A DNA stretch of 64,000 nucleotides, from positions 372,001 through 436,000 of the forward strand of contig JAQGDQ010000046.1 in NCBI GenBank assembly GCA_030141605.1. Reading direction: 5' to 3'. Source of the stretch: Tubiluchus corallicola (taxonomy: Eukaryota > Priapulida > Priapulimorpha > Priapulimorphida > Tubiluchidae). Below are positions 18,801-54,059 of this stretch, one piece after another; within the stretch, counting starts at the first letter, position 1; every line of letters begins with the position of its first letter. Made by a program: the position numbers and the translations under genes. A model generated the notes under the pieces. It had not been told where the DNA came from. It was given only the letters and a program-made list of their open reading frames with translations, and searched no databases.

Positions 18801-20950
18801 TCAAAAATTTTTATTATAAAGTAAACCACGCAATTATGCAAAGAAAAAACTTCTTGTAGGCTGTATTTCAGGTTTTATCTGAGGAAAAAAGTATTTATAA
18901 ATGCCCAGGCTCAAGTGACAATTTTATGCGATTTCTATGTATACAGTGTTTTGAAACTCGCTATTTGCACGGATTCACGACAACACAGTAACTAGCACAC
19001 TAATTGCTAGGTAACACACCACAAATAAAAGTTTTAGCAGATTTGCAGTTATGGAGATGAATACGTAGTAACAGACCTCGCTTAGCTTTCATACTAGACT
19101 AAATATAGATTTAGTAGGTATAGCATACAGAACACACGTATGCTGGATATTGTTAATTCCATTAAATTTTGTTTTGCTAGCTACTCTTGTTATAGCTTTA
19201 CATTTTCCAGAGCATGTTCAGCTGCATAAAAATAATGGCTATTATAGCAATAGTTATTATTCTTAAACAGCTCAATATATTCCACTATTGTTGTAAAAAA
19301 AGCGTTATCTGCCTTCGGATAAGCTTGAACAACACTAAACAGTTTTTGGCTCTCCAAAATTTTTGAGGTCTTTTACGTTTACCTCAGCCAGACAGCCACA
19401 CAATGTGGCTGAAACAAAATTAAGAATATTGCAATAAATGTAGTTTGTGTGCAAATTTTTATTTGACTCATTGCAATTGAGCATTAATAACTTTGACCAC
19501 AAGGTGACCTTGTTTTGCGAATTGCACCACACCTCACACTTTAATTTCAGTTAGCTATTACTTTTAACTGATTAGTAGCCTATACTTTTTTCAGTGTCCA
19601 AACCTATTACTTTTTATAACAATCTAATGTATAGCAAAAATTCCAGAGTTTGCAGGGTAACTTTTTAACGTCTTCTTTTTGCGAATCTCGCTTACTCATA
19701 AATGTCTCTATCATTAAGTAGCGTCTCGTATCACTGGGATGCACGCAATGCCCACAATATGGAAAATCACAAAATGCAGATATCTGTAGGCCCACCTTAT
19801 AATCATCAGAGAATTGTTCGACAACAGGAATGCTTTTCACCTGCAAAATTAAATCCAATTTAATAAATTGTGATGTACAGATAAAACATTTCCTTGCTTC
19901 TAAATGTTCCTTTCGTTCCTTCCTTCCTTTCTTCTTTTACTTGCTTTGTAAATAAATTCCTTTTGAACCGTTATACGAAGTATTTTAAACTAAGTTTTGT
20001 GGATAGCTAGTCTACACTATAGTTTTTCAAGCAGTTTCAACAAATTTTTGTCTAAATGAAGGGATCAGAGAAGTGAGTAAATACTTTCTCCGTTCGTAAA
20101 TTATGGCAATAAATTTTGTGGTGCTATTTATTTTCTGAAAACACAAACTTTCTGCCAAAACTTCTACACTCTACCTGGCAGGGAATTCCATCGTAGTGGC
20201 GAGTGAACTCATATATCTGTTTTTTCTCTACTAGTTCCTGTTTCCGTGGTTCCATCTGATCATCGAATTGAGGTAAACAACAATCATGTTCCTTAATTCG
20301 GTATTTCTGGAATGCGTTAATCCACCGCTGTATGGGAAAGTAGAATTGACACCCAACAGAAACATGTTGAACCATCACGTAATCTACATACCTGAAAGTC
20401 GTGTAGAAGTTTGAAATGGATCAAACTGTGTAGACTGAAAATGTGCAAGTGGATTTTGGCTGACCATGCAAGTAAGTGAGAGAAGCTTATCAATGGGAAG
20501 GCGAAAGGAGAGTAAGTGAAAAAAACGTGTGAGTGTGAGCTAGCTAGCGACGAATTAGGTGTGTCACGACGGCGAGCATATTTTGGGAGCTTATTGGTTT
20601 GGCCACTTTCAGAAAACCGGTGGCGGAAAAGTTAAAAAGGTGTCTTACCAGTCGTCACAGAAGCCGTTGGCATCTCTCCACAATTCTATTTGTGCAATTT
20701 TGCCAAACCCCGACAGCTTTGGACACGGGAAAACGTCCGTGTTGCCTCTCTCGAAATCATTTCTGAAGAGGACATCCAGGCATATTTCCGGTGACTTCCG
20801 GCCCGAATCGTCAAAAAGTACGATGTAGACGTTGGCATCCGTTCCAGCTCCCTTTTTGTCACCAGTTCGTACGTGGATGTGGTAGTCAGAAAATCTAAGT
20901 GCTGCTGGATTCCGGATACTTTTTGATAAGGAATATAAGTAATTTCCCAT
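9872..20950 (-). CDS. PLAT-domain lipoxygenase (non-heme iron dioxygenase), about 718 residues
   Basis: Lipoxygenases add O2 to polyunsaturated fatty acids. Exons on the minus strand, 5' to 3': 20950-20649, 20391-20175, 19840-19796, 18473-18345, 18014-17973 (uncertain), 17802-17732, 17565-17459, 17117-16985, 16692-16603, 15924-15828, 15596-15479, 15235-15143, 14914-14748, 14260-14172, 12488-12312, 10398-10235, 9986-9872. Start is ATG at 20950, just before the PLAT domain (about residues 18-135). The catalytic domain shows [16 protein letters not shown], then iron ligands His410 and His415 (QAVTHLG / LTHLV, split by an intron), His597 and Asn601 (GHASVNF) and the C-terminal Ile718 (PNSISI). 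TPRTEKDV and DELQ-W type blocks are also present. Phases agree at every junction except that into exon 17802-17732, which is off by one base. The intron 15142-14915 uses a GC donor. Length and ligand set indicate an active enzyme; position and stereo-specificity cannot be read without alignment. Confidence 0.92.
10399..12311 (-). other. Lipoxygenase intron holding a retroelement tail
   Basis: Contains the LINE/SINE-like 3' tail at about 11215-11535 described separately. The short open frames at 10677-10868 and 10897-11100 have no splice-site support and no family resemblance, so I do not call them exons. Confidence 0.5.
11215..11535 (+). repeat. Probable truncated non-LTR retroelement 3' end with (CATT)n tail
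   Basis: The stretch ends in AATAAAA followed by CTCATTCATTCATT, a simple-repeat tail typical of some LINE and LINE-dependent SINE families. A GCTGG-TTGCT-CCAGC hairpin lies at 11448-11462, about 50 bases before the tail, as in the 3' UTR hairpins such elements use for reverse-transcriptase recognition. No coding remnant is visible here. It sits inside a lipoxygenase intron. Confidence 0.45.
12489..14171 (-). other. Lipoxygenase intron
   Basis: Includes an alternating AT tract at about 13098-13135. The open frames at 13116-13505 (hydrophobic, pyrimidine-rich) and 13333-13527 are low-complexity by-products. No exon with matching phase is visible. Confidence 0.5.
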
Positions 20951-22522
20951 GATTTTCAGAAGATGTTTTTCTTTGGTGGTGTTGTTGTTGTTATTGTAAG
21001 GCCACAAAAGACTCTCTGAATGTGCCAGGTCCTAGAAAATCGACAGAATCTTGGACAATTATCTACAAATGAGCTTAAACATACAACAAGGTTCGTAAGC
21101 TATTTTGCATAAATTATAATGCGTGGAAAAATGTAGCTACAAGAATGTAGTTTTTCTGTAACAGTTATCTTTGACCAAATAGTCAATCAAGAGTCAATAA
21201 CCATTCAGTTAGTAAAACCTGATAACATGTTTTCATTAACCAGCTACCACGCTAAGTTGATCAGAGCAAAAACTCCAGTCGGTCCAAGATCGGTAATCGA
21301 CAATCAGAAAAAAATTGTATTCCATGAACTCCGAGATTATTTGATTTTTTGAAGGTTGGCTCTACAGAATTGTTAGATTCAAAATGTTAATGCATTAGAG
21401 ATTTCTTAAGAGATAGGAGATCGAATAGCTCCGTGGAAGCTGTGTCCTCGACGCTCGTTAAATGGACTTTTCGATAATGCTAGCTACATATTTATATATA
21501 AACTTTATTTATTTAGTGTGAATCGATAAAACAGCGTAGCTGATGACAGTAATGTTACTACAGTGTTCTAATACTTCTATATACAAAGCTACGTTTGTTC
21601 ATTTTCAAGTCAAAAATTGTTCACATATTTCGCAGCTCTAAAAGTAATAAAAAATCATTACTTTACTTTAAACACCATAATGATGCAATAATTAATTTTG
21701 TAGGTTATCTTCAACTAATTTTTTAATCTTTGTAATTATAACGTTTTCTTGACTGACTAGTGACTAATGTTAGCTACATGAATATTAATCATAATATAAA
21801 GTCCGATTTATCATGGAGTTCGCAGGCATATCCGGGCGCCGGTTCTAATAAAACTCTACCAAACGTTCATAAGTTAATAATCTTGATGTTGTAATACCGG
21901 GTATGGTAAGCGTAATTGTAATCCGCGCAGCCCTGCGATACGTTCATTCATAAATCTGACCCACGTTTCTTTACCCTTTGCCATGTGCAAAAATTAATTA
22001 AAACACACTGACCTTTGAGACTGTAAGCCAATATCCTGCGTAGTCTCGAGGCACTATGCACGGTACTTCACAGCTACTGTATTTCACTGTTTGCCCTCTA
22101 GCAAAATATATCCGGTCTTATGAAGCAATTTCATTGAATAACTTTTCATTCTAAGGGCGCGGCAAAATCAGTGGTTAATTCAATAATAGCGTATATGAAT
22201 AATCGTGTCACATCAACTGAAGTTTGGTTAATGCATAGGGTAAATGTTCCATTCCGCGCAGAAAAATGGCGCAAGGCTTAGCCTGAATTAACGAAAAAGA
22301 TGGATTATTCGCTATACCTACTGCAACTATAAGTGCAAGGCTACCGGAGTATTTAGAAATCTATTTTTACTTGTTTAGAGGGTCACTGTCACGATTGTAG
22401 TCGAGCAACTATGACCAAGCCGAATAAATATTGCCGTACTCAACAAAGGCATGCAGGGCCGCACTAACTAAAAGTATTTTTAGCGTCCTTTCTCAACTGC
22501 TAGGCCCTTTCAACGGCCCCTC

Positions 22523-22853
22523 CATGCACCACATTCGCAAAATTGAATTTTTGTTGTACGTAATAAAGTATAATGGTACCTATGTCTTAGGCTTGTGCAT
22601 GTGTTGTCGTGCACTAATTTATTGTAATTAATTAGTTATTTACAGCTTGTATTGATTTCATTTGAAGTTAAATTTGTGACTGGTCTTCTGCCCCCGCGCA
22701 CTTAACCCGCAAAATTGAATTTTGCCGTGCGTAATAATGGTACCTACGTGCTAGACTTATGCATGTATTACAGTGCATTAATTAATTGTAGTTAATTACC
22801 TATTTACACCTTGTATTGATTTCATTTGAAGTTAAATTTATGACTGGTCTTCA
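22523..22853. repeat. Degenerate tandem duplication, two units of about 160 bases
   Basis: Unit 1 (about 22523-22690) and unit 2 (about 22697-22853) run in parallel. Both start near CGCAAAATTGAATTTT, pass through ATAATGGTACCTA and a TGCATTAATT-like stretch, and end in TTGATTTCATTTGAAGTTAAATTT and CTGGTCTTC. Several substitutions and small gaps separate them. Confidence 0.75.
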
Positions 22854-28435: not shown

Positions 28436-29279
28436 TATCTCCGGGTGATACGTTTATTTGGTGTAATTTGACAGAACTAACAGGGTCTGTAACCTTTAGC
28501 ATTGTCACAGGTCAAAGCACCTGCGTGTATCGCATTTCTAAAATAATATTCTTTGTCTTCTGGAATTTTCAAGGTAGGCTCAACATTTTGCGCATGCTAT
28601 GGCTACACTTGTTGTGTTCGGAAAAATTGGCAGAAAAAAATCTAAAACAAAAATATCACACGGCCAAAGCGGACAAAAGACATAGATTCGAAAGAATATG
28701 GAACTATGAATGCTGTAACGTTCGTTCCCTAAATAAACTTTTGCCGCTATGTGATTTCTCTGATAAAGATCAATGGGAGATGATGAGTGACTACAATGTG
28801 TGCTTGGCAACCGAAATTAAGCATATGTAGGCCTGAGTAGTTGAAAGATGTGTAATTCCCAGAAAGTCGCTCAAGTGTGGCTTTATGTGTCATACAATCT
28901 CTGGGCAGTTGGAGCACACCGTCCGAATGTGGCCAAGATTCAATGTCTAATCTTAGCAGACTATGTCTGACAATTAAGCTATGTCGCGGTCCTGCCACAA
29001 TCATTTATATTAAGTAGGTTTTACAGCTGAGTACCAAACTAGATAAAAACAAACATTTTTACAGGGAATTTAAGATGCTGTAGATTTTCTATTCCTGAAA
29101 ACTCCCTCATTTATCTTTTATTTTTTTAGAACAAGTTACTTTGGAAGAGGCGAAGCCAGCTTCACAAAGCCATCGTTATTAATAGTTTATTCAGCGTAAT
29201 TTAGTGAAAGCCGTCACTAAGTTAACTTAGTGACGGCTTTGTGAAACCGGCCTCAGATTCGGTTCAATAAAAATCATTT
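28436..29279. other. Short intergenic stretch downstream of the peptide-precursor gene
   Basis: Holds the palindrome at 29207-29240. TTTATT at 29117-29122 is AATAAA on the minus strand and may be the poly(A) signal of the 29280-34002 gene. The open frame at 28468-28830 is not supported by any motif. Confidence 0.4.
29207..29240. repeat. Perfect 34-base palindrome with further outer inverted repeat
   Basis: The arms are AAAGCCGTCACTAAGTT and its exact complement, with no spacer. A looser inverted copy of the GGCTTTGTGAA part lies just to the left at about 29153-29171. The arrangement looks like a tiny foldback element end. It is about 40 bases downstream of the stop codon of the minus-strand peptide gene, so it could also form a hairpin in that transcript's 3' UTR. 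Confidence 0.7.
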
Positions 29280-32200
29280 CTATACAATATCATTGGCATC
29301 AATATACAGTACATCATCAGCATCATGAAGATAATAGCAGTCATCATCATGTTTGCTTCTTACAGCTGCAACTCTAAGCTTTCCTTTGCGTTTTCGGGGA
29401 CGACGACGTCGCCCAGTTGCAACCACATTGTCGTCATTACCTACAGCGATCATTCCTCGTGTTTTACTTCCGGATACGGCTACATCGTCTTCTCCTTTGT
29501 TTGTAACTACAACACGTCTTCTGGTTCCAGCAATAACTCCTCCTTCGTTGCCAAGAGCTTCAGCAACAAGAAGTGTTTCCAAAAGGTCATCGTCGTCATT
29601 TGCATCACTTCCTCCTGTTTCCAAAACTCTCCGTGCTCCCGTACGTTTCCTCCCTCGACGTCGCTTAGCAATGACTACGTTGTCATCATCACCAGTAACA
29701 ATAATGGCATCACTGTTCTTGTTATCGGACCTATTACTTGTTGTTCCAGCCACCACTGCATTGTTATTCTTTATTACTTGCGAAGCAATAAGGGTTTTCG
29801 TAAGGAAATCTTTATCATTCTCTTTCTCATCTAAAATCTTTGAAGCCACTAAAGTATTGATTAATGCCTCGTTTCTATCGTCCTCTCGATCGTTTATCAA
29901 CGTTGAAGCAGCAAGTGTTCTTCCAAGGGTTCTGCGCCGGATTGCCTCTAACGCGAGTGGACTATTTCCAGCGGTACGACTATTAGACCGTCCTCTGATT
30001 CTGCTTCGCAATCGCCCACGCCCACCAATAACCTACAACACAGACATTGCATTCAGAGATTTCAGTAATTTCATAAAAGTTAAATTTAATATATTTAAAC
30101 GAATCAAAAACTGATAAACGGTAACGCTCAGAATCTCCTCCTTAATTCCAAATATAATTCGCTTCTAGTCTCTATAGATTAATAATTGTACATTAGCTAT
30201 GTCATTTAACCTGTGTGTGCAAAGTCACTGGCGCAAATCTAAGCTTAGCACGGATTTTTTTTTTATTTTCTCGTTTTCTTCATATGGATTCGGATTTTCT
30301 TATGGAAAATTGGATGTAGTTTAAACCATTGTTAATCATAAAATTAAGAACATAAACAATAATCTCCCTTAATATTGCTTATCCTGCTTTAACTAGTACC
30401 TATACCTAGTGTATCCTGAACCTGATATATCTGCACTAGATGCCCTATATGCTATCTCATCTTGTCTTATCCTACAGCCTACTACGACAATAAGATACCT
30501 AATTACATAGCACAGTGAACAGTGCAGAAATTCAGTAATGTCCGCTTATAGATCCTATTTGTCACACAGATTACCCAGAATTGAACGATTCTCATCTAAT
30601 AAACGTCCGGACTAGATAGCATCTTTGCGGAACGTTATAAACATGCGTGAGATAATTGTGTGCTGCTGTTATCCATGTGTTTTAATGCATGGATTAATTT
30701 TTTTTATTGTACATATATTTAAATGTTGCTGTGGGAAGCCAACTCGTAGATTATAGCTCTATTTTTGACACAGTAAGCCACAAAGACATAATTACTGCAC
30801 TTTGTAATTGATTATAATATGGATATGTAGTTATTTAACAAACCATCTCAGCAAGTAAAAATTGACGAAATTCGGTTTGATGTTATGAACATAAACATCG
30901 GAACGGCACAAGGCGGTGTAGTAGCTGCTATATTATTCAATTTGTACGAATAGTATTGTAGCATTTGGAATCAACAGCAAACTTATCAAATTTGCCCATG
31001 ACACTACTTTTCTTAAAAGTGTTAAGTGAACATTTTTTGCCTTATCAATATGAAGTCGTGTCAGTATCAAATTCATTAAATAAATATCATCGTTAACAAA
31101 TTTCAATCTCCTTTGTTACCAAAATTACATTAGTGAAATAAAAGAGGCTTTCTATTCATCCTGCCAAAAGTGAGAACAAATATAATAGTTTTATACCATC
31201 AGCTGTTCTGCTTAACAGTTAACATCAACAGTTAACAATTCCATAAGTTATAACTGTTGTAAAATACATTGATTAATTTTTAAGTGTATAATGCTTTCAT
31301 GTAATTTTAGGCCTGTATTGTATTTGTAATCTTTTAACTGCATGTGCATGTGTATATATAGGCATATAGATTGTGTAATTTTTAAATTAATTTGTTGTAA
31401 CACTGAAGCGCATTTTTAGTGCAGTAATTAAATCTTATCGTCATTTGTTTTTAATATAGTCGCTAAGTGTGATCGTCTAACTTTGCTGTTGTCATGCCGG
31501 TGAAAAATCGAGATGGTGCGAAGCCGGCTGCTTTTACAACAAATTTAACGAGTTTAATTGCTTCTTCTGGTAAAACAAAGCTTTAGACGGCTTACTGAGC
31601 TTACGTGAAACAAAATAACAAAAGAAACAAACAAAACAGCAGAATATTCATAAATATACATGGCCATGCCCATGGACATTCAAAAAATACTTAATGCAAT
31701 CTACCTTTACCCCGTTACCCAAACATGCAAAGGCATCTTCTAGTCCAATATTGTAAGAGGAGTTCAGCGACAAAGTAATTTGCTCTGATTTTCACATTTT
31801 GGATCCTATCGATGCGATCTTTAAACCGGAGATCATCTTCCTGTACCATTCTATGAGAACCTGTCACAAGTGTCTATCCTGTAGGTTTCATGATTCTAGC
31901 TGTTATATTTATGCCGTTATTGACATGATCCCATTTTAGCACTTTTGCCCGTGTCGAATTTAAACTATACTACAAAACAATTAATTTAAATTATATTTTA
32001 GAGAGTAAAAGGTGCTTCAAATCTCCTTTAAAGCTGTATGCCTATCGCATTTTTGAGAAATAGTGTGTGAAGCTAATATCCACTTTTACATTTCGACATT
32101 AAGCAAAATGATTTTGTCAGTTCGCTAATCTCTACAAAATTAAATTAATTTCTATTTATGCCTTAAACTGGTTTGAACGTGATAATGTAAAAACACTACT

Positions 32201-33021
32201 GATAGTAAAATTAATTATTTCGCAATTGTCCGAAAACTCGCTGTATGGTCAAGTTGCGTGCTTTGTTACGAAGAAAAGCAGCACAAGATCTAGTTAATAA
32301 GTACAAGGGTAACCTATCATGGTCGCTGGTCAAAACATTAGTTCTGATTTCACTAAAAAGAAATGCAATTTCTAATTAACCAAGCATGCGAATTCAATGG
32401 AGGCCATATTATCCCCGACAGAGCCTCGAGTACAGACCACGGGTGAAAAAGTGACAAGTTCTGATTGTAGTGATACTTTTTAAGTCAATCACAACAGCAG
32501 GCCTACTTATATACATGTTTTAAATATTGTGAAAAAATATTTGGAAATATTTCACAGAAACTGTCGTTTAAGGCATTTGCTTTCACAGAAGCGAAATCTT
32601 ATCACAGTGTTGCATTGCACAGTCAAAAACGGTCACTAGTCTGATTTCCTTTTGCTCTTTAAGTGTCGTTTGTACGATTATGTTAATTTTTATGTATTTT
32701 TCTTGTATGTTACAAACATCATCTACTTGTGTGCCAAACTTTAACTGATTTGTGCCAATACTGTTTTTAGTTCCAAGAATTAGCAAGATTATTTCAGACA
32801 AGACCTATGATTTTTTTTACTCCAACTGCAACACTTAGCCTATAACACTAACTTAATACCGAAGTGTAAAGAATGTGCAAAATGTTGCACTTGGAATAAA
32901 AAAATCATTTATGTGTAGGCCCTACAAAATCACGTAACTGGTATGTATAACATATAGCAATAGCATATGCGTACAGGATAATTAGGACTGTTGCACAAAA
33001 GGATTTGGTGATGATGGTGAC

Positions 33022-33062
<41 letters not shown>

Positions 33063-34002
33063 CGAAACAACAACAATAACGATTTCAATAATGATGATAG
33101 CGATTATGGCGATAATGGCGATGATTGTGGTGATGATGAAAACGGTGTTGTTTGTAATTTTCGTGCTTTGTTTGAGCTTTGTAACGTAGTACTATAGGCC
33201 CGGCTGTCTTTTAGCACTCAGAATCATTAATAACATAATAAAAGATTATCAAAGCTTACCCTGACAGCTTCACCTTCTTGAACATGTGTTACTGAAAAAA
33301 AGAAAAAACACACTAAAATCATACAAGTCTCACATTCCAAAAATAATAAAATAAAATCGCTTGAAATAAGATTAACCGTTTGAACCAGTAACAAAACTGT
33401 GCTAATCCATATGATGATGAACATGAAATCGAAAACGACTACATTAAACAGAACCTCAGCAGACTGAAAAATAAAACACATTATTGATAAAATACATACA
33501 TACAAATTCCATAAATAAAACGACGAGGAAAAAAGTGGATTTAGGCTATAAGCAGTGTTTTTATAAATATATTTAGAAATGTCTGGAGTAAGCCTATGAA
33601 AAACAGCAAGAATACGAATAAGATACTACAATGAACAAGGTATTGTTGGGTTGATCGCAAATCAGACCCAACAGTGATTTTAATTTCATACATTTTCGTG
33701 TGAAACTTTTTTTACGAGTAATATTTTATTCCTTTACGCTTTCCGTTCTTGAACATATAAGGTTAGCTTTAGTTACTGTGGCAATTATTTCACATAAAAA
33801 TTTTAAAAAGACTATTAAATCCGGCATTGAGTGTCGTGTCTTAAAAGTTATATTAAGATATTTATGAGTTAAAAATGAGAAAACAATTGAATAAAAATTT
33901 TGTTTGCAACACATTCGTACAGTATGATACGAAATTTGTATACTCACGTATGAAGACTGTCACAGTATATAATAAAAACAAGTTAAAAGAGGGCCTAAGC
34001 AT
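29280..34002 (-). CDS. Secreted polybasic/polyacidic repeat precursor, 279 residues (putative multi-peptide precursor)
   Basis: I do not recognise a named family. Three exons on the minus strand: 34002-33948, 33291-33260 and 30032-29280, joining in phases 1 and 0. Exon 1 encodes a hydrophobic signal peptide starting MLRPSFNLFLLYTVTVFI. The 32-base micro-exon 2 encodes THVQEGEAVR, close to exon 2 of the gene at 41586. Exon 3 (250 codons) encodes basic blocks (residues 34-44, 61-67, 152-164, 200-202, 237-249, such as KRRRGRKRTGARR) alternating with acidic spacers (77-84, 143-146, 172-178, 228-230). Three TL-x-AS units recur about every 20 residues (68-116). A GDDDN/GNDDN unit followed by RRR occurs twice. 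A TATAAAT lies at 34045-34051, about 45 bases upstream of the ATG. Likely a secreted cationic-peptide precursor; an alternative is an extracellular matrix or neuropeptide precursor. The exon 1 link is inferred from phase, TATA box and signal peptide. Confidence 0.6.
30735..31040 (+). pseudogene. Decayed LINE reverse-transcriptase fragment
   Basis: Broken frames spell reverse-transcriptase blocks in order: DYSSIFDTVSHKDIITAL (about 30755-30808), GTAQGGVVAAILFNLY (about 30902-30950), which corresponds to the GxPQGxxxxPxLFNLY block, and IKFAHDTTFLKS (about 30982-31020), a damaged xADDT active-site block. Stops and frame shifts separate them, so it is dead. It lies in the long intron of the 29280-34002 gene, on the opposite strand. 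Confidence 0.75.
32115..32640 (+). repeat. Dispersed repeat, copy 1 (partner at 52605-53152)
   Basis: About 525 bases parallel the copy near 53 kb in the same orientation. Shared blocks include TATGGTCAAGTTG, AGTTAATAA, AGTTCTGATTT, AACGAAATGCAATT/AAAGAAATGCAATT, GCGAATTCAATGGAG and GTGAAAAAGTG. The copies are diverged and neither has a coding frame. It is an unclassified, non-coding mobile-element relic. Confidence 0.8.
33008..33063. repeat. (GAT)n microsatellite
   Basis: Nearly pure GAT triplets with a few interruptions, in the intron between exons 2 and 3 of the minus-strand peptide gene. Confidence 0.9.
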
Positions 34003-34044
34003 CTTTATGAAGTGACTGAAATTGTGTTTTCTCACTTTGCATGG

Positions 34045-34051
34045 ATTTATA
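34045..34051 (-). promoter_or_regulatory. TATA box of the 29280-34002 gene
   Basis: TATAAAT on the minus strand, about 45 bases upstream of the proposed ATG at 34002, leaving a very short 5' UTR. It supports the first-exon choice. Confidence 0.5.
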
Positions 34052-34796
34052 AGCGCCGCGTCGTTATTTATGTCAGTAGACGTTACCCTTACTCTGTAAG
34101 AAGCCTCATATTGAAAATTAGTTTATCAATCTTTCTCGTGCAGCATATTACCTGCATAACACAATTTTATTTAGGTTAGCTTATTAGAGCCACCATGTCC
34201 ACCTTAATTGTGAACAGGTTCACTTTATTAGAGTATTGTGAACATGCAGTTTAGCCTACATAAGAAACTAATACAAATTTAGCTTTGATTAGATCTTAAT
34301 TTAACTAGTTACATTAATTAGGCTAATAAAAAGGGGTTTGGTCGTCACAACTCTCCTACTCAATATTCATTAAGATATTTTCTTACTCAGTTTTCTTTTG
34401 TGGACCACGAAAAAATTAGTATATTCGTTACCGTGGATCAGTTTGTGATAAGCTTAGTGTGCTTGCAGGCGTACGCTAAGTAGCTGAATCAAATACTGTT
34501 TAATCATGCCTAGCAAATGTTGAATGTACTTATAATTTTACGAAGTAGTTATTATTTGTCGAGTTTTTTCTTTAGTATCTTCTGTCTATAAGCCAGGTTC
34601 AGAAAATTAGACTAAAATAACGTAGTCACAAGAAGACATCAATACAAAAATAAAACTCCTACTATCAGATTTTAATTTTAGTTTTTTCCCATTGTATGTA
34701 CACGGAAATCTCATTGAATTGTTCCCTCTCTGTATTGTGTTTGCTTAATTTTCATAATTAATCAATATCGATTATCGGAACTTTAGTTTTCTTCTT

Positions 34797-35105
<309 letters not shown>

Positions 35106-36714
35106 TTAATGTCTTATTTCCTTATTTGTTAGCACAGTTCTTTAATACATTGATAATATTGCCAACATACCTGTATTATATATCAATGTACGTTACAATA
35201 GGTCTATTGAAATTTCATAACATTATTTAATATTAATTCTCCACGGCGCTACATGCAAAATTTTTGTTAATGCGAAACACTTTGCGTAAAACTATTTACA
35301 CAATATTTTCATGCGAAAATTTTCAACTGCTGCAGATTCATTGGGCCTGCTAGAATAATAAAATTCTGCTTTAATGTCTCTTCTCTGTCTGTGAAACCAC
35401 TGTTTATATATCTAAACTGAGTACGCTTTTCTTCAATAGAAAATACTAAGAAAGAACAGAAAATAATATGTTCCACCAAGAAGCCACATTGAACCCGTAC
35501 ATGTGCAGGGCTCAAAAACAAGTATAGTACTCAATAACTGTCAATTAGTAACATTTTTTAAAGCTTTCCTAGCTATTGAGAGACACATCGCATTAAAAAT
35601 TTTCTGCCAATGGGTGGACCGGGCCGAAACCAATGGATATCGAAGACTTGAACTGCGAAAAAGCTTAGTCCTCAATCAGCGTTGATTTGTCAACATTTGA
35701 CTTTATTACTAAACAACTAAATCGGAAAGCGTCAGCACAACCGTAAAAACTGTGTTTATTTTCTAAGTAAGAGATTAAGCATTATAATCATTTTTGTAAA
35801 CTGGCAAAAATCTATAATGTATAATTTTGAGTTTAAGCCAAGTTACCCGTAAATTTTTGAGATGCAAGTGTGAAACTAATTTCGTTGTTTAGTTAGTACG
35901 AATATTGTAACAATCAACTTAAAATCTGGGTAGCGTTGAGGGTAAGATTTTTTAAAGGCTAACAAAATATGCTATATTTAAGTAGCATTCCTTCTTGATT
36001 TCTGTTTGTGCTACAAAGTTACAATATTTCTGGAGCCTTTAACTCACAAAATTAAGGAGGCGTATTTTTGCCTGTTTATTTTAAATTTTCTAACGTTATT
36101 TTGTGGGAAATATTGATCCAGTAAAATAAACAAAAATCTACTTTGCAATAAATAATTCTTCTAGCTGTTTGTGCACTGGTGGTCGTTCCATTCCTGCGTA
36201 AAATTAATGTCTGTCTGTTTAAAATGACGAAATTAGAAAGCTATTTGCACGTGGTCTAATGTTATTTTAACGATTTAACTCGTTCCTTTAAATGAAACAA
36301 ACAGTAACCTACTGGACTATTTCTCCAAACGGTGAAAGAGGTTTGTAAGTGATTTATCGAGACATGGCCTCTTCTAGTTAGTGTTGAAAACAACTTATCA
36401 ATAAAATACTGCGCGATGCATGGGTACATCATGAATTCATAATGAGCCACAAACAAGTTATCAGTTATACACTTTTAGCTTTAATGCGATGCTGCATAAT
36501 TTGATGTGCAATATGAATACCTGGATATTGTCTGTGATTATGATATGTTGGAACAGGGTATTAAGTGCTCAGTGGTCAGCTTATATGGATTTTTTAAACA
36601 GACAGTTTTATTATATATTTATAGTAACACTTTTTTTATTTCTGATTGTTAATTATTGTAAATGTATTTTAAGAATTGGACTTATGTAAAATTTAAATGG
36701 TCCTAGTTAACAGG

Positions 36715-36957
36715 AAAGATGTTGTAGGCCTCTACCCTAGTGGTATGGCTGCCGAACCAAGGGTTGGGGTTCAAATCGCACTCATGGAGGGTTTTTTGTA
36801 CCATATCCCACTCGAATAGAATAAAAGGAAGAAAGGCGGCCAAGTGATAGGCCACTCGTCTGTCGTCCGTATGTGCCGAGGCTACCAAAATAGATGCTGT
36901 ATCCATCTATCCCAACTTCTTCTTCTTTTTCTTCTCTTCCTCCTCCTTCTTCTTCTA
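36715..36957 (+). repeat. tRNA-derived SINE with (CTT)n-like tail
   Basis: An A-box-like TAGTGGTATGGC (36738-36749) and a B box GGTTCAAATCG (36768-36778) are spaced as in a tRNA head. A unique body follows (ending TGCCGAGGCTACC... ATCCATCTATCCC) and then a CTTCTTCTTC-rich tail to 36957. It would be transcribed by RNA polymerase III if alive. The ORF on the minus strand inside it is not a gene. Confidence 0.65.
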
Positions 36958-38722
36958 ATTGACCGAATAATTAAATAAATAAACTGCATGATACATGATA
37001 ACATAATAAATTCAAACGAGCTAAAACTAACTTATGAATGTTGTACTGCATGATGCTTGGACACTATAAATTCAAAATGGGCTAAAAGTAACGATATAAG
37101 GCACGATGCATCCTGCATGCTACCTCATAAATTTATAATACCATTCCTGACGGTAATGTGTTAGTGCAATGTGACGCTATTATCAAATAATTAATGGTGA
37201 ATGTAGTTGTGCATGCATACAAAAACGAGAAATACTGAATAGGGCAGTACACATGTTTTAGTTATATTGTACGAAAAGGAAAACTACCAATAAAGTCAAC
37301 GAGCTGACATAGACTAATATGTTGTCCTTCGCTGTTTTATTGCCCCAAAATTCAAAGAAAGCCGAACTTATCAAGTCCCGTGATTTAAAACCGGCGAAAC
37401 TCGTCCAATGTATTATTTTGACAAGGTAAACAGGATGTGGAGTTAATGCTGATCTCGAGCCATGTGTCTTTAATATACCAGGGTTTGTCTTTTTAGTATC
37501 TCACTTAATGAATTGCATACAATGGTCGATGCCAACTAAACGAGTGCTGGTAACTTTTATAACAATTTTTATAATGGATAAGCAGACGAAAATCTTGGTT
37601 TATAATACAACATTGCTCTGGCATTCATGGAAAGAGTTACTTCATAGCATTGTTAGTTTTTTACATAATGATAAATTCGCTTCCCATCATATTTAGTCCT
37701 ATTGACATCAAGAGTTTAATGTTGCCAAAACAATCAATCAATTAATTACTAGTACCTTAGCCAGTCGGCACCTTCTTCCCTTTTGTGATACTTCGTTTTA
37801 AAAATCAGCTATGAATGAAATGCTGACGCTGACTCCACTTTCACTGACTGTGTCCAGTTTCGCTTGACTAAAAGGTTTCATTATAAAGAATTTTTATTGA
37901 TAATGCTGATCCCCTGATGATGCTAAAGTTTTGCTGACCCACTGTTTTATTTGGCTTAATTGAAAGGCTTTATTGTGAATAATTTGTTACAATACCAAGT
38001 ATGTAAAATGCGTGTAATTATATTTAATCATTTTGAAAATATTAAACGTTGCATTGCTTCCGTTGTCGGTATCATAACACATAGCCTGCTTATTGTGCTT
38101 GATATACTAAACTAACAAAAATAAATGAACATAACAGTGATTTGCTGTCACTTTCAACAGTGTTGTAAAGAAAAATTAATGAAAAAACAATGCAGTTTGT
38201 TTCAACATTTTATTTGACAAAAAATGCTTTTTGTTGTGCAATGCTGAATAATATTTAGCATCCCGTTTCCTGTAAAGTTTAGGTAGCACTATTGAATTTT
38301 TGACAACTGAAAGCAATTTGCTTAATAATTTAACCTGTACGCTGATATGAACTATATACAGTAGGAAGCAAGACAGATGACTGACCTAGCTTAGTTGACA
38401 AACATTTAATTGCCCATATTGATATAAATAATCAAACTCATTTTGGCCTATTAGGTCTCTCCAGCGTGATCTTTTTTCCCGTCTCGCCCCGTCTGCTCTA
38501 AATGGTCCAAGCTCGAAAGTAAAACAATTTCGATAATTTTTTAGAAGTCCTACAGAAAATCTTGTAGAGTTAGAATTCTTGACTCGGCTACCTGCCTACC
38601 TTAATTATATGTACATATTTCCTAACATCACTGAAAGCAGTCAGACAGAACTATGAGAAAATTAGAGGAACTTAGGAAATGCTTCAACAGGCGTAATTAA
38701 CGCACAGGCGTGTCAAGGCAGG

Positions 38723-38731
38723 TATAAATAG
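38723..38731 (+). promoter_or_regulatory. TATA box of the 38808 peptide gene
   Basis: TATAAATAG, 77 bases upstream of the ATG. The same nonamer followed by C is upstream of the paralogue at 41586. Confidence 0.7.
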
Positions 38732-38807
38732 CCCGGGATTTGAAGTGGAGGATTTTTAAACTACATAAACAGGATAACGTTTAGCTGGTAAATATTACAA
38801 GAGAACG

Positions 38808-40549
38808 ATGAAGAAATTAGCAATTCTTACACTTTGCCTTTTGATCTCTGCATTATTGCGTAAGTATTAGGTTTATTACACTTTGTTAAGCCTACAACGT
38901 TCTACACATTATTAGCAGTAATATATCTTAACTGACCAATATAATAATAATAATAATAATAACATGCGTCAAAATATTGATATGAAGCACTGACTACTGG
39001 CGAAGTCGTTAATTATTGAAACGTCCTTACATGTTAAAATATGCATATTCTTCGGTTCGTAGTTCTAACAGAAACATTGTTTTTTATTTTAGTAACGGAT
39101 GTAAAACGGAAAGCTGAAGCCAAAGTGGTAAGACTGACCTTTACCTTATTGTTTTTGTTAGGCTTTACTTTATTAATGCTTGTCTGAATCGCGTGCGGGA
39201 TATGAATTAAACTGTACGCATCAAATATTTTACCCATGCATTAGTTTTAATATGCGGTTTTGTACTAAAGAAATCAGTGTACAGGACAACAATGAAAAAT
39301 TAAAAAGTTTTTACACTGTTTAAAATAATTAGTGCTATGTTAGTTTTATTTTGAAAGTTTAAAAAGCACTGATAGTTAGAAGCAGAATTAGAAACCAACT
39401 ACTTTTGAATGCGAAGCATTGAGTTACTGATTTATTGAGTTTTTCTGCCCAGCTGCATAGTTATATCATTTAGAATAAGATACGATAAGGTAAGATAAGA
39501 AAATTTATTTATTAATAATCAAATATAAGCACAAGCTCAGAAAAGCTTCTTTTTGACTATTATCAGCTAAAATATTACATAACAATTAACAAGAGAAATT
39601 TTATTACTTTATTTATTATTCATTTATTGACAGCATCCTTACAAGAACAAAGCAAGATTACAAAATAAAATTATCCAACAATTAATCTTTCTAAAGCTTG
39701 CCCAAAAATTATGGCTGCGGTTTCACCAGCACATGGTATTAGAGTGTGAGTGTGTTAACACAATGACTGGATTGTTATCACAATTATTGTTAACACAATG
39801 ACACAAAGTCAAAAGTGTATTAATAGTATACTGTTTCATAATTTAACGTATTGTATTCATCGTCCTAAACGGCAAAGTAGGTTTTATTCATAGACAAATT
39901 CTTGATGTTTTATCGTGATCTAAAAACAACTGAAAACATTCAAAACGGAAATAAAAAAGTTTCTCGTTTTGTATTTCGCTAAGCAATTTTTATTCAAAGT
40001 TCAATTTATTGCAATTAATTAATTAATTCGCTGCAACTCGATTTAGTACGGCGATCCTTCATGTTTTATAAGATTGAATGCCTCACGAAGACACTGTGAT
40101 TATTTGAAAACGTTTGATTGCTTTGACTTTACCCATTCAATTAATATCTTTCTATCCTAACAGTTCCATACAGACTTAGATATTTTTCGTTCGGTGTATA
40201 GTAATATAAATCATAATTATATCGTTTTTTATTACAAATTTGATGTACGCTACGTTAGCTCTTTAGTAGGGGAAATTTTTTTCTTTCATGTTCAGCGACC
40301 TTTGGCTTATGAGCCAGTGACAGTGACCAAAATCGCAATTGGGACATCCACTGAATGTTATGTGTTGGTTGTCTTACAAAAATGTATTTTGGTTTTGCAA
40401 ATGTGTTACAAAAGCAGTATTTTTAGGTTGCTGTTTCACGTGCAAGAAAAGGCTCACACCACAATTACAGAGCTGCTTACTCTGGCGTACGATACAGAAA
40501 TCGACGAGCTCGCAAGAAGATAAGCTCAGCTGTCCACGATAGGGACTGA
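38808..40549 (+). CDS. Small secreted cationic peptide precursor, 69 residues (paralogue of 41586 gene)
   Basis: Three exons: 38808-38859, 39093-39127 and 40427-40549 (stop TGA), joined in phases 1 and 0. Exon 1 encodes the signal peptide MKKLAILTLCLLISALL, nearly the same as its neighbour's. Exon 2 encodes the linker TDVKRKAEAKV. Exon 3 encodes a 40-residue, very basic product (VAVSRARKGSHHNYRAAYSG, then VRYRNRRARKKISSAVHDRD) with 12 Arg/Lys against 2 Asp and no Cys. The VSR-R...SH...RA pattern matches exon 3 of the 41586 gene, which decides the reading frame; another open frame in the same exon (ending at 40523) lacks that match. TATA box at 38723 and AATAAA at 40722 frame the gene. Likely a secreted host-defence-type peptide; I recognise no named family. 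Function is inference. Confidence 0.7.
38939..38961. repeat. (ATA)n microsatellite
   Basis: About eight AAT/ATA triplets in the first intron of the 38808 gene. Confidence 0.8.
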
Positions 40550-40721
40550 TGAGAAAAGATCGAAGTAAAATACGAGTCGACATATCGATTCCATTTTCAG
40601 CTAATATCGATTTATGCAACTTTTCACTCATTAGTAGATTATTTAGATGGTGTGTGATATTTTCTGTACTTGTGCTATCTGGTAATTAGAGTATTAGAAA
40701 TTTAATGTCATGTATTCGTAG

Positions 40722-40727
40722 AATAAA
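40722..40727 (+). terminator. Poly(A) signal AATAAA of the 38808 peptide gene
   Basis: It lies 173 bases past the TGA stop, the first AATAAA in this orientation after the gene. Confidence 0.5.
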
Positions 40728-41475
40728 AAGTATATAGGCTAGATCTATTTTAAGTTACTAGAATTTTCTTTTAAGACAATTGCCGATTTTGCGAAAACTA
40801 AAGTTCAAAAGAATGAGTATACATTGGCAACAAAAATTTTAAGCGTAGTTTTTACACAACTGAGAGTCTATTACTTTGCCGTCACTTCTACACTTTCTGC
40901 TTTTCTCTGTCAGTACCCTCTAACTTTCTTTATGTCATTGTGTCTCCCATCTTTTCTTCTATCTCTCGTAGTTTTCCTCGTAGTTTTTTCACTCTCACTG
41001 TGTCACTTGCTTTTTCTTTGTTCTTTTTTCCTATTTTCTCTTTTTCTGCATCTTTTTACGTATTTATTTGTATTTTATTTCCTTTATTTTCATTTTTGAA
41101 TGTCGTTTCCATTTTTCTATGTTATTCCTTCGTGTGCCTACAAACACGGTCGTAATTTGCTTGATCTATCCCAAACAATCACATTAAGAATCCCTCAGCC
41201 TACGTGTACATAATAAGATTAATTTTGTAAACGATATAGGCCTGAAGGAATTTAATGTTATATGAGTAATAAAGCAACTTAGCGGCATTCATTCAAAGGG
41301 CTTCGTTAACGAATTAGTTGCTCCAAACAATATTTCATAACAGGCCCACGTCCCGCATCATAAGTCCGAGTAATAGGCTGAATAGCCCTGTTGACCCCAG
41401 TATATGAATATCCTGCACTAAGTAATTAAAGTTACTTATACTGGTATATTGAAAATGAAAGGGGTGCCGAAAGTG
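40728..41475. other. Spacer between the two tandem peptide genes
   Basis: Contains a pyrimidine-rich stretch at about 40900-41100 that yields hydrophobic pseudo-frames on the + strand. No exon is visible. It presumably holds the upstream control region of the 41586 gene. Confidence 0.4.
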
Positions 41476-41484
41476 TATAAATAG
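41476..41484 (+). promoter_or_regulatory. TATA box of the 41586 peptide gene
   Basis: TATAAATAG, 101 bases upstream of the ATG, the same core as in the paralogue at 38808. Confidence 0.7.
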
Positions 41485-41585
41485 CTTGGTGCAGCTATGC
41501 AATGAACACAAGGTAAACTGATTTCTCAGAAATTTCTACTGGAAGGTTTGGCTATCCAGAATCATACATCAAGCAAAACCACACC

Positions 41586-43401
41586 ATGAACAAGACTTTG
41601 ATTTTCACACTCTGTCTTCTGATATCAGCGTTGATACGTAAGTTTAAGTTTTTCCATTTTCGTTGATTTGATTTTTTTAACTTTCAGTACAATTATTATG
41701 TCTGCCATAGCAGATCAATTTCGGGAAGAAATCGCAAGAATACGTACTAACATGCTTAAATCAATGGACATTTTGTGATAAATAGTTAACACTTGTCATG
41801 TAAAATCATCAATGAACGAGATAATTGTTGTAGGTCCACTTTAAATAAATCAACTTTAGATTAAACATAACTATGTAATTGCTGTGTTGCTTTAAAATCT
41901 TTAACTGCTAAATTTAAAAGAAAGTTAATTTTATTTACATACGCACGCGAGGTAAAGCTTTCCTGAGGTGATTCATTAATACAACTTTTATCAAAATTAA
42001 TATTGTAAAGAACAAAAATGTCTATTTTATGACAAGCAACAGCCTGCATTTTAACAAAAAGAAGCTTTCCAATATTACCACTGACGAAATAACGTTAAAA
42101 GTCGTGCCAATAATTTTGTTTAAAATTGTACAGTGTATATGTCTTGATCGTTTCCTTCTGAAAAATAGAAAACAATATTTTCTAATTGATAAAGGCATTA
42201 ACCGAAATAATCAAGTGCTTGTTTGATACATTGGATAAAAAATATGATGAAGTGCTATTTTACTACAGTTTTTCATCAGCTACAAGATTTTCTCTAATAG
42301 AATTATAGAAAAGCCCAGTTTAGCTAAATTTCCGCACATTACTCCAAAACTTATTTTACTATTTTTAGAATGATGTCTATCTACATGATTTTAATATGAT
42401 TTTTACCATTTTTTCAGTGACATATCAAGTACAAGAAAGTGAAGCCGTGAGGGTACATTTTATTAATTTTCTAATGAATTTTTTATAATCATGAGTGCTA
42501 AAAATCACTTGGGAACAAAATATTTATAAAAAAGCTCAGAATATGAAATGTAAATAATAACGTCATAAACGTCATCATCATCATCATCTTCACCATCGTC
42601 ATCATCATCATCATTATCATCACCATCGTCGTCATCGTCACCGCTATTATCGTCACTACCGACATCATCATCTCCATCATCATTATCGTCGTCATCATCG
42701 TCATCATCATCATTATTATCATCACCATTACTGTCATCACCATCACCATTATTATCGTTAACTCAACAAATGCTAAATTCTATTACGGCGTAACTGTAAC
42801 CTAGTGCTTAATAAAAAGTGTTAAACATTAGTTTAAAAAATTATTCAACAAGATAAAATCTATACTTGTGCAATTGATATTTGATACTTATGACAACTCA
42901 TACACGCAAAATAGTGTACAAATGTGACCAGTGACATTACAGTTATATGAGAAAACAAAAAAACAAAAACAAAAATAAAGCAATTTTTGCTCAGAAATAT
43001 TAGCAGGCACACGATAAACAAATTTGTTAAACAATTAAAATAAAATAGCAAAGGGGTTAGTAGCCCTGTACAAAAACGGAAAAAGACGCAATGTTTAAGT
43101 TATGTTGTTATTAGTAGCTGCCTAATAGCCTACGTACAGCCTAAAGTTGCGATATTATTTTAGCCTAATTTTATCGCTATGTATAGTGTCTTGAATGTAA
43201 TAATATTCTATATAAAAGTGGTTACAACCTCAAAAAGTTATTAATTTGCTGTCGTAGGCGTATGTCTCACGATCAAGAGTGGCGGGCTCACACGGGGCGT
43301 TTAGAGCTGGAGCCGCTGGTTCACGTACTCGTGCCAAATTTAGAAGAGTTCGTGACGCTAGCGACCTCTCGTTTGATCCGGAAGAGTTTGAAGAAGAATA
43401 A
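41586..43401 (+). CDS. Small secreted peptide precursor with basic core and acidic tail, 76 residues
   Basis: Three exons: 41586-41637, 42418-42452 and 43258-43401 (stop TAA), with the same phases (1 and 0) as the gene at 38808. Exon 1 encodes the signal peptide MNKTLIFTLCLLISALI. The 35-base exon 2 encodes TYQVQESEAVR. Exon 3 encodes a 32-residue basic stretch starting AYVSRSRVAGSHGAFRAGAA and ending RAKFRRVR, with nine Arg/Lys and no acidic residue, followed by a 15-residue tail ending FDPEEFEEE with eight acidic residues and no basic one. This charge split is typical of antimicrobial peptide precursors in which an acidic propiece masks the cationic peptide until cleavage. No Cys. TATA box at 41476 and AATAAA at 43581. 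The antimicrobial role is inference; the gene structure and relation to 38808 are seen in the sequence. Confidence 0.75.
42562..42762. repeat. (ATC)n microsatellite
   Basis: About 200 bases of CAT/ATC triplets with interruptions, in the second intron of the 41586 gene. The Met-rich open frame on the minus strand across it is an artefact. Confidence 0.9.
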
Positions 43402-43580
43402 TGGGAAACTCTTAATAGCAGTAGAGTAGTGATAAAGATTCATCAAAATTCCGAGTAGTATTTAATATTTTTATCTGTAAACTACATCTTATTCTTTCTT
43501 AGTTTTCATGATGTTCATTTTTAGTTCGACTCTAGTAATTGTTTTCGAAGTTCTATGCGTTACTGTGCTCTCTGTAGCTA

Positions 43581-43586
43581 ATAAAT
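43581..43586 (+). terminator. Poly(A) signal AATAAA of the 41586 peptide gene
   Basis: It lies 180 bases past the stop, nearly the same spacing as in the paralogue (173 bases). A second AATAAA occurs at about 43811. Confidence 0.55.
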
Positions 43587-52604: not shown

Positions 52605-53152
52605 ATGTCAGGCTTCATCTAGTTTTTACAAAATTGAAATTATATTAATTTGTGTTTTCCTTGAAATTGGTTTGAATGTGCTAAAGTTAAAATGCTATTG
52701 ACAGCGTAAAATTATTATTTTGCAACTTTCTGAAACTCGCTGATAACTGGGGAAGGAAATACCTATATGGTCAAGTTGAGTGCTTGCTTGCAAAAAAAGA
52801 GCAATACAAGAATTAGTTAATAATTACATTGGTGACTGGTCACCTATAATTAGAAGTTCTGATTTTACTAAAACGAAATGCAATTCTTAGGTAATATAGC
52901 ATGGCGAATTCAATGGAGCCACTATTATGCCACTCGCAGTCTTGATTTACGTGCCGCTAGTGAAAAAGTGCAAGTTCCGATTTCACTGAAGCTTTTAATG
53001 TGGAGCACAACAGTATTTACATACATAATGATAAATATTTTGAAAAACATTTTTTATTTGAAAAACAAACCTTGTTTATTAAAGCATCGCTCAAGGCATC
53101 TCCTGTCACAGAAGTAGAATCTTACTACAGTTCCTGACAGAGTCAAAAATGT
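52605..53152 (+). repeat. Dispersed repeat, copy 2 (partner at 32115-32640)
   Basis: Same orientation and block order as copy 1, diverged throughout, with a small insertion near 52745 (GATAACTGGGGAAGGAAATACC) absent from copy 1. The short open frame 52878-53117 lies inside it and is not a gene. Confidence 0.8.
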
Positions 53153-54059
53153 TTACTACTTACAAATAATTATCAAGTTTAACAAAATAAACGTTTCCTG
53201 AAACGAAATTGCAAAGCAAAGTTAATATGATTTTAAGCAGGTAAATATATTTGAAGTTGCAGATCTAATCGATATGAAGCAAAGCGCAAGCTGACTTTGC
53301 AAGTCTGCGATGCCTATATGTAACGTCATGGAGGTGGTTAACAGTTTTTGAAATTCCTTGTGTTCAACATTGGTTCCATTATTTCAAAGACTTCAATTGC
53401 GCCCTAGTATCATAATTTACGTAGAAAAAAAATTGAAAGCGCAGTAAATAACTATGTATGTCTGTCAAAATTCAAGACTTTTGTGCTTTAGAACTCAGAA
53501 CATCAAATAAATATGTCGAATAGCAGGAAAAAACAACAAATTTGTATGGCTCTTAAAACACTTGGTAGGAAAGACTGTAGGCCTATATATAGAATCCCAG
53601 TAAGTTGTGTCATTGTTTAAGTGCATATTTTCATAGAGACACATGTCCGTCAGCATATTGCCAAATTACTAATTTAGCAAACAGTAGCTGAAACAGTAAG
53701 CGAAATTAGTAGCGAACCAAACTTTTTTCCGCCGCCGTGGTAGTAATGACAACTTTTGTCACAATGCTTATGGTAATGTAGGTTCTTGTTCTATACTTTA
53801 ATAAGAACTGCAGCAGCATTTCCAAGAATGCAAATTATGAGTACGTTTGTGATGTAACTAGATTGCTAGGCGTATTGGTTGCCTCGCGCAACCAAACACC
53901 TTTGTTATAATATTATATAATAATGATGCCTATGACGTCTTAGATACAGAAGGGAGCTACTTTCAGATGTGGCAGTGCTTTCAGGCTAGGCAATTGTGAA
54001 TGACATTTCACCACCATGTCATTTCCATCATGCCTTAGCCCATATCAGTGTAAAAGGCA
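53153..54059. other. Upstream region of the Ig-receptor gene
   Basis: AT-rich. I see no clear TATA box near 54060 and no exon upstream, though a non-coding 5' exon cannot be excluded. Confidence 0.35.

What the first reader, a model, noticed from the sequence alone, without database searches (positions are those of the whole stretch)
29280..43401. A three-gene family of small secreted, extremely basic peptide precursors
Three genes share signal-peptide exon, micro-exon linker and Arg/Lys-rich last exon, with identical intron phases (1, 0). Two are tandem on + and clearly paralogous in all three exons; the third, on -, shares exon 2 (QEGEAVR vs QESEAVR) and the phase pattern but has a long, repeat-built last exon. 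I know of no described family with this structure. Secretion and charge suggest host defence; that is inference.
Basis: partly seen in the sequence, partly recalled or inferred. Interest (0 to 1): 0.9.

Follow-up and report, generated by a model that had tools for sequence, protein, structure and literature searches.

The report
Small cluster of secreted basic-peptide genes
An invertebrate-like animal genome holds three neighbouring genes that seem to share a way of exporting small Arg-rich proteins but carry different cargo; they look like undescribed members of an ordinary kind of defence-peptide gene, with one unusual twist: a tiny exon copied between two of them.

Summary
The gene models hold. 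A (+), B (+) and C (-) have three exons each, GT-AG introns in phases 1 and 0, exons 1+2 totalling 87 nt (C's exon 1 is chosen among candidates) and a TATA box 49-110 nt before the ATG. A and B are paralogous in exons 1 and 3. B and C share the micro-exon with its intron flanks and a (TCA)n array; in 343.5 Mb the exon-2 signature was found only in B and C. B-C similarity ends abruptly: exon 1 is marginal, exon 3 and most of intron 1 show none. C looks like a different payload around a copied micro-exon.

'Extremely basic' fits A; B is a +10 block with a -8 tail; C alternates basic and acidic repeats. The micro-exon ends at an (A/S/G)-E-A, signal-cleavage-like site, so it is probably the end of the signal peptide, not a linker.

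No family profile passed its cut-off. Best reading: cysteine-free cationic host-defence precursors that work like Ciona LCAMPs or myticalins without being members. Expression and activity are untested.

The parts
38808..38859 (+). gene A exon 1 (signal-like MKKLAILTLCLLISALL + 1 nt, phase-1 donor)
   Evidence: 33 of 52 nt identical to B exon 1
39093..39127 (+). gene A micro-exon 2 (LTDVKRKAEAKV with exon-1 base), phase 1 to 0
40427..40549 (+). gene A exon 3, 40 aa, 12 Lys/Arg, pI 11.7, stop
   Evidence: A-B exon 3 0 of 2000 shuffles
38723..38732 (+). TATA box TATAAATAGC, 85 nt before the ATG of A
40722..40727 (+). AATAAA, 172 nt after the stop of A
41586..41637 (+). gene B exon 1 (signal-like MNKTLIFTLCLLISALI + 1 nt)
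42418..42452 (+). gene B micro-exon 2 (LTYQVQESEAVR with exon-1 base)
43258..43401 (+). gene B exon 3: basic block ending RRVR, then acidic tail DASDLSFDPEEFEEE (-8), stop
41476..41485 (+). TATA box TATAAATAGC, 110 nt before the ATG of B
43580..43585 (+). AATAAA, 178 nt after the stop of B
33948..34002 (-). gene C exon 1 (signal-like MLRPSFNLFLLYTVTVFI + 1 nt, donor GTGAGT); best of three candidates
33260..33291 (-). gene C micro-exon 2 (LTHVQEGEAVR with exon-1 base)
29280..30032 (-). gene C exon 3, 250 aa, repeat-built, alternating basic and acidic segments, stop
34046..34051 (-). TATA box (TATAAATCC) 49 nt before the ATG of C
29186..29191 (-). AATAAA 88 nt after the stop of C
42351..42712 (+). 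block shared with gene C: end of intron 1, exon 2, start of intron 2, (TCA)n array
   Evidence: 68% over 366 columns; flank tests
33009..33354 (-). the same block in gene C

Best explanation
A, B and C are real genes for small secreted proteins with TATA-box promoters. Exon 1 plus the micro-exon encode a 29-residue front end: signal peptide with its cleavage site after (A/S/G)-E-A at residue 27 (inferred), leaving two residues before the payload exon. In B a furin-type cut after RRVR (inferred) would free a 34-residue, +10, cysteine-free Arg/Ser/Ala/Gly peptide from an acidic tail that offsets its charge until export. A gives a similar +11 peptide without such a tail. C carries a longer, unrelated payload of repeated basic and acidic segments. 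The mature peptides most likely act as linear cationic host-defence peptides that bind anionic microbial surfaces or nucleic acids without an amphipathic helix. B and C are tied by a copied block of about 360 bp that carries the micro-exon. Shown: gene structure, A-B paralogy, B-C block and its limits, charge pattern. Inferred: transcription, secretion, cleavage sites, activity.
For: Gene models, phases, 87-nt front end in 3 of 3 genes. TATA box within 110 nt of the ATG in 3 of 3 (TATAAAT occurs 18 + 23 times on the two strands of 64 kb, so about 0.035 expected per 110 nt); TATAAATAGC occurs twice in the window, before A and B (4 of 100 shuffles have two or more). A-B substitutions change fewer residues than random ones: exons 1+2, 3 of 20000 controls as few and stop-free (14013 controls had a stop); 34 codons of exon 3, 0 of 20000 (16280 had a stop). 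B-C: 51 of 63, 26 of 32 and 33 of 49 aligned columns identical in intron-1 end, exon 2 and intron-2 start. Exon-2 signature with up to one mismatch: 2 hits, both exact, in B and C; reversed control 5. Exon-1 signature: 2 exact hits (A, B) and 36 with one mismatch; control 51. C exon 3: 250 open codons, 0 of 5000 simulations open with either composition, codon-position bias like four conserved genes of the window. Charge pattern of B. Signal-cationic-anionic order is that of Ciona LCAMPs; one of them, KH.C7.94 (+11), is active against E. coli, S. aureus and yeast with the same whole-peptide moment as B, 0.118.
Against: No transcript, peptide or activity evidence. No amphipathic helix: best 18-residue moments of six A, B and C segments reached by 667-975 of 1000 shuffles (B's strand-like moment, 0.379 at 160 degrees, was not tested against shuffles). 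No NF-kB-like site GGGRNWYYCC in the window, though only 0.91 is expected. Identity of A and B in exon 3 is even over codon positions (14, 15, 13 of 34), and in A exon 3 a shifted sense frame scores better on codon use than the proposed one (0.287 against 0.207). The stretch between hydrophobic core and proposed cleavage site is rather long, and no signal-peptide predictor could be run. C fits the pattern poorly. Single-sequence models give no confident fold (mean pLDDT 36.6 for C exon 3, 67.5 for B exon 3). The synonymous bias of B-C exon 2 is only suggestive (848 or 813 of 20000 controls).
Confidence: 0.5

Rival explanations
1. Extracellular matrix or mineral-binding proteins: alternating acidic and basic repeats in C and basic blocks in A and B bind polyanions or mineral in a secreted matrix.
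For: C exon 3 is repetitive and its 20-residue windows swing between +7..+11 and -7..-8, as in low-complexity secreted matrix proteins (recalled).
Against: A and B are short; B has one compact acidic tail right after RRVR, which looks like a propiece.
Confidence: 0.17
2. Regulatory (hormone-like) peptide precursors processed at basic sites.
For: Basic cleavage-like motifs: RNRR in A, RRVR in B, RRRR preceded by Gly in C.
Against: No repeated peptide with Gly-Lys-Arg amidation spacing is seen on reading the sequences; the basic runs are longer than processing sites need.
Confidence: 0.1
3. C is an independent gene that acquired B's micro-exon (or the reverse) by a local inverted copy or a gene-conversion tract, so only A and B form a family. 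This concerns origin and does not exclude the best explanation for A and B.
For: B-C similarity covers 42351-42712 only; rest of intron 1 (103 of 200 shuffles reach the score), exon 3 (133 of 200), 5' flank (173 of 200) and 3' flank (37 of 200) show none.
Against: Exon 1 keeps weak similarity (86 of 5000; 9 of 200); the front end is 87 nt in both (with the chosen exon 1); the last 400 nt of intron 2 score oddly high (3 of 200, one of ten tests). Fast loss of similarity outside the block is possible.
Confidence: 0.45
4. The models are chance: open frames and splice-like sites in AT-rich intergenic DNA.
For: Short exons; no transcript evidence; no database match.
Against:: shared exons, phases, in-frame gap, signatures found genome-wide only here, TATA boxes.
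Confidence: 0.04

Closest known systems
Linear cationic AMPs of Ciona (Ci-MAM, Ci-PAP, KH.C7.94 and others; PMC7387483, 12 of 18 matching passages read)
   Same: Small cysteine-free precursors; signal peptide, cationic region, anionic C-terminal region in that order (B); conserved signals within families; KH.C7.94 is similarly Arg-rich and not amphipathic by my calculation.
   Different: Different signal sequences; no amphipathic helix; A lacks the anionic part; the paper's text held no 'exon', so gene plans could not be compared. A GH6 search (recalled mark of tunicate cellulose synthase) found nothing in this genome, but its control rang nowhere either.
Myticalins and modiocalins of mussels (PMC5577615, 12 of 19 matching passages; PMC12294457, abstract and outline)
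   Same: Arg-rich linear cationic region followed by an anionic extension; mature part highly variable.
   Different: Myticalin genes have a 5'UTR-only exon, signal and mature peptide in one exon, and a phase-1 intron in the extension; here the signal is split by a phase-1 intron and the payload starts at a phase-0 intron. Extension 35-75 aa and a Lys-Arg site there, 15 aa and RRVR here.
Secreted peptide genes with a phase-1 intron near the signal-cleavage site, read as exon shuffling (scorpion venom genes, PMC5308243, abstract and outline)
   Same: Phase-1 intron near the end of the signal sequence with unlike payloads behind it.
   Different: Here a second, phase-0 intron follows and a micro-exon carries the cleavage-like site; the payload exons match no known fold or family.
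Schistosome micro-exon genes (PMC10526429, matching passages)
   Same: Secreted products, very short exon.
   Different: Those have 10-20 short exons, mostly multiples of three, the majority 15 bp; here one micro-exon of 35 or 32 nt, not a multiple of three.

Membership tests
Ciona-type LCAMP precursors | signal peptide, cationic region, anionic region in that order | tested here: inconclusive
   met in charge order by 1 of 3 genes: B, +10 block of 34 aa then -8 tail of 15 aa; A lacks the tail; C alternates. The signal peptide was judged by eye only.
Ciona-type LCAMP precursors | cationic amphipathic helix | tested here: not met
   whole-block moments 0.118 (B) and 0.153 (A); best windows reached by 887 and 714 of 1000 shuffles; the script reproduces three published values
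Ciona-type LCAMP precursors | family signal consensus | tested here: not met
   by eye against the two consensuses printed in the passages: B agrees with the second only at M1, N2, K3 and L9
Myticalins | 5'UTR-only first exon, signal and mature peptide in one exon, phase-1 intron in the extension | tested here: not met
   (an upstream 5'UTR exon here cannot be excluded, but signal and payload lie in separate exons)
Myticalins | Lys-Arg site before a 35-75 aa anionic extension | tested here: not met
   RRVR and a 15-aa tail in B, no extension in A
Schistosome MEGs | many short exons, mostly multiples of three | tested here: not met
   one micro-exon of 35 or 32 nt per gene
Host-defence peptides (function) | antimicrobial activity and expression in immune or barrier tissue | not testable with these tools
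   needs RNA-seq and peptide assays
Any curated protein family | profile match above cut-off | tested here: not met
   A, B and C exon 3: none over a cut-off in Pfam (best E 0.21) or NCBIfam (best E 0.012 at 14 bits against a cut-off of 640). Solved structures: B best E 1.9, C exon 3 best E 1; A was not searched there.

The most novel reading that the evidence does not exclude
A micro-exon that carries only the end of the signal peptide and its cleavage site works as a mobile secretion cassette: a copied block of about 360 bp with it, inverted some 9 kb away, was built into a gene with an unrelated, repeat-built payload. New secreted proteins would then arise by capture of a cleavage-site micro-exon rather than of a whole signal exon.
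Probability: 0.25. Interest if true: 0.65.

Novelty: new variant of a known kind. Interest (0 to 1): 0.45.

Why it matters
If expressed, these would be a lineage-restricted set of nearly cysteine-free Arg-rich peptides, a type that homology searches easily miss. The B-C pair would also be a compact natural test of how a secretory front end is joined to new cargo: intron flanks can date the copying while the payloads do not align.

Tried and rejected
Transposon or dispersed repeat carrying exon 2: not supported. The DNA block finds only itself in the genome (which also missed C at 68%, so its reach is limited) and the exon-2 signature occurs only in B and C (A's exon 2 does not fit that signature). 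Antisense coding of the C exon-3 region (a 258-aa frame on +): codon scores favour the minus frame (0.205 against at most 0.047 antisense; the shifted sense frame scores 0.208 but has 14 stops) and Pfam has no match for it. More members nearby: tblastn of exons 1 and 3 on 200 kb of flanks gave only weak hits (best E 0.052), not followed up; exon 2 was not searched there. More members elsewhere: protein searches gave A's own exon alone, B's own exons plus one weak hit at E 0.4 (read, no such gene seen), and C's own exon alone. A and B did not find each other in these searches, so the negatives are weak. Six of the 36 one-mismatch exon-1 hits were read; none has an in-frame ATG before the motif; 30 were not read. 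Viral contigs: 16 pattern matches, none confirmed. Rfam: nothing at gathering score. Mitochondrial code as a clue to the animal: COX1 not found. Motif search in papers: 0. An acidic tail lost from A: the 3' ends of A and B do not align (263 of 300 shuffles reach the score).
Full report
What is there. A (+), B (+) and C (-) each have a short first exon with ATG and a hydrophobic run, a micro-exon of 35, 35 or 32 nt, and a last exon ending in a stop. All introns are GT-AG, phases 1 then 0. Exons 1 and 2 together make 87 nt, 29 codons, in all three. For C this rests on the choice of exon 1: three candidate readings passed a filter in 33292-38300; the chosen one has the best donor (5 of 6) but another is more hydrophobic. 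TATA boxes lie 85, 110 and 49 nt before the ATGs; TATAAATAGC occurs twice in the 64 kb, before A and before B (4 of 100 shuffles have two or more). AATAAA signals follow 172, 178 and 88 nt after the stops.

Is it more than chance? A and B: exon 1 33 of 52 nt and exon 2 18 of 35 nt identical; exon-3 proteins score 47, reached by 0 of 2000 shuffles; the 29-aa front ends share 16 residues. The substitutions between them change fewer residues than random ones do: 3 of 20000 controls as few and stop-free for exons 1+2, 0 of 20000 for 34 codons of exon 3; most controls failed by a stop (14013 and 16280). Against that, exon-3 identity is even over codon positions (14, 15, 13 of 34). The A-B exon-1 match runs about 25 nt into intron 1; the tested ends of the introns beside exon 2 do not align (189 and 71 of 300 shuffles). 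B and C: comparing the window with itself gave a block, B 42351-42712 against C 33354-33009, 68% over 366 columns. Part of it is a (TCA)n array, but the parts without it match too: intron-1 end 51 of 63, exon 2 26 of 32, intron-2 start 33 of 49 aligned columns (shuffles 0 of 200 each; under other scoring 0 and 3 of 300 for the flanks). In exon 2 the gap is 3 nt and 4 of 6 differing codons are synonymous; 848 or 813 of 20000 random controls do as well, so this is only suggestive. A's exon 2 matches C's and B's weakly (24 and 32 of 2000 shuffles), and the A and C front ends share 4 of 29 residues (1007 of 5000 shuffles).

Whole genome. The window is contig C859:372001-436000 of a 343.5-Mb assembly. 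A degenerate pattern for Q-E-(S/G)-E-A-V-R followed by GT, with up to one mismatch, was found twice, in B and in C, both exact; the reversed control pattern 5 times. A pattern for T-L-C-L-L-I-S-A-L has two exact hits, A and B, and 36 with one mismatch; control 51. Six of the 36 were read; none has an in-frame ATG before the motif. Protein searches found no other convincing member, but A and B did not find each other in them, so distant relatives may exist.

Where B and C part. Outside the block little or nothing aligns: 5' flank (173 of 200 shuffles reach the score), remainder of intron 1 (103 of 200), intron 2 after the array (178 of 200), exon 3 (133 of 200), 3' flank (37 of 200). Exon 1 is marginal (9 of 200; another test 86 of 5000). 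The last 400 nt of intron 2 reach 3 of 200, one of ten tests. Intron sequence at 81% identity that ends abruptly next to sequence with none is what a copied segment or a conversion tract would leave. So C is tied to B by its micro-exon while its payload is different. Very fast change of the signal and payload exons remains possible.

The products. A, 69 aa: after the proposed cleavage 42 aa, net +11. B, 76 aa: a 34-residue block, +10 with no acidic residue, ends in RRVR and is followed by a 15-residue tail of -8. C, 279 aa: internal repeats (131-165 with 216-250, score 65, 0 of 200 full shuffles, 1 of 200 local shuffles; 98-151 with 172-225) and alternating basic and acidic windows, with one Cys. 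The long frame of C exon 3 is not expected by chance (0 of 5000 simulations with its own composition, 0 of 5000 with the window's), and its codon-position bias resembles that of four conserved genes of the window; for the short A exon 3 the codon score does not favour the proposed frame (0.207 against 0.287 shifted). No predictor was available.

Mechanism. Best reading: secreted cationic peptides for defence, with B's acidic tail as a propiece. Support is by architecture: the Ciona LCAMP paper (PMC7387483, passages) describes signal, cationic and anionic regions in that order. My moment calculation reproduces three of its published values and shows A and B not to be amphipathic helices; the active Ciona peptide KH.C7.94 (+11, moment 0.118, the same as B's block) is not one either. 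Against it: no expression data, no NF-kB-like site in the window (0 found, 0.91 expected), and C fits less well. Predicted models are of low confidence and were not used for fold searches.

Comparison. Myticalins (PMC5577615, passages) share the charge plan but have a different exon plan. Schistosome micro-exon genes (PMC10526429, passages) differ in number and length of exons. A phase-1 intron near the signal-cleavage site with unlike payloads behind it has been read as exon shuffling in scorpion venom genes (PMC5308243, abstract and outline). No curated family passes its cut-off; B and C exon 3 match no solved structure; no paper of the library holds any of six chosen sequence motifs.

Host. 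The animal is not named. The window also holds a steroid-receptor-like nuclear receptor, a galactosyltransferase, a sulfotransferase, an Ig protein and lipoxygenase exons. The receptor's best chains overall are multi-domain glucocorticoid receptors (180.8 bits); among shown chains of ligand-binding-domain length the best is 4n1y, an oestrogen receptor (150.6 bits; recalled to be the oyster's), the next 145.8 (60 of 428 shown). That is weak evidence on the host.

Verdict. Observation confirmed with corrections; interpretation partly supported. Apparently a new set of a familiar kind, with an unusual copied micro-exon.

Noticed in passing
window 61126-62460 (+): Nuclear receptor with DNA-binding and ligand-binding domains in one uninterrupted frame (PF00105, PF00104); steroid-receptor-like, its ligand-binding part closest to oestrogen receptors among chains of that length.
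   Followed up: partly
window 12225-21031 (-): Exons of a PLAT-lipoxygenase gene (PF00305 at 12225-12494, PF01477 at 20648-21031).
   Followed up: no
window 54054-56750 (+): 899-codon open frame with seven Ig_3 stretches, uninterrupted.
   Followed up: no
window 32137-32638 and 52637-53158: Two copies of a segment, 67% over 544 columns, probably a dispersed repeat; one lies in intron 2 of gene C.
   Followed up: no
window 22536-22688 and 22708-22852: Tandem pair of about 150 bp, 82% identical.
   Followed up: no
window 34807-35094: (TTA)69 microsatellite followed by a (CAT)26 array, some 750 nt upstream of gene C.
   Followed up: no
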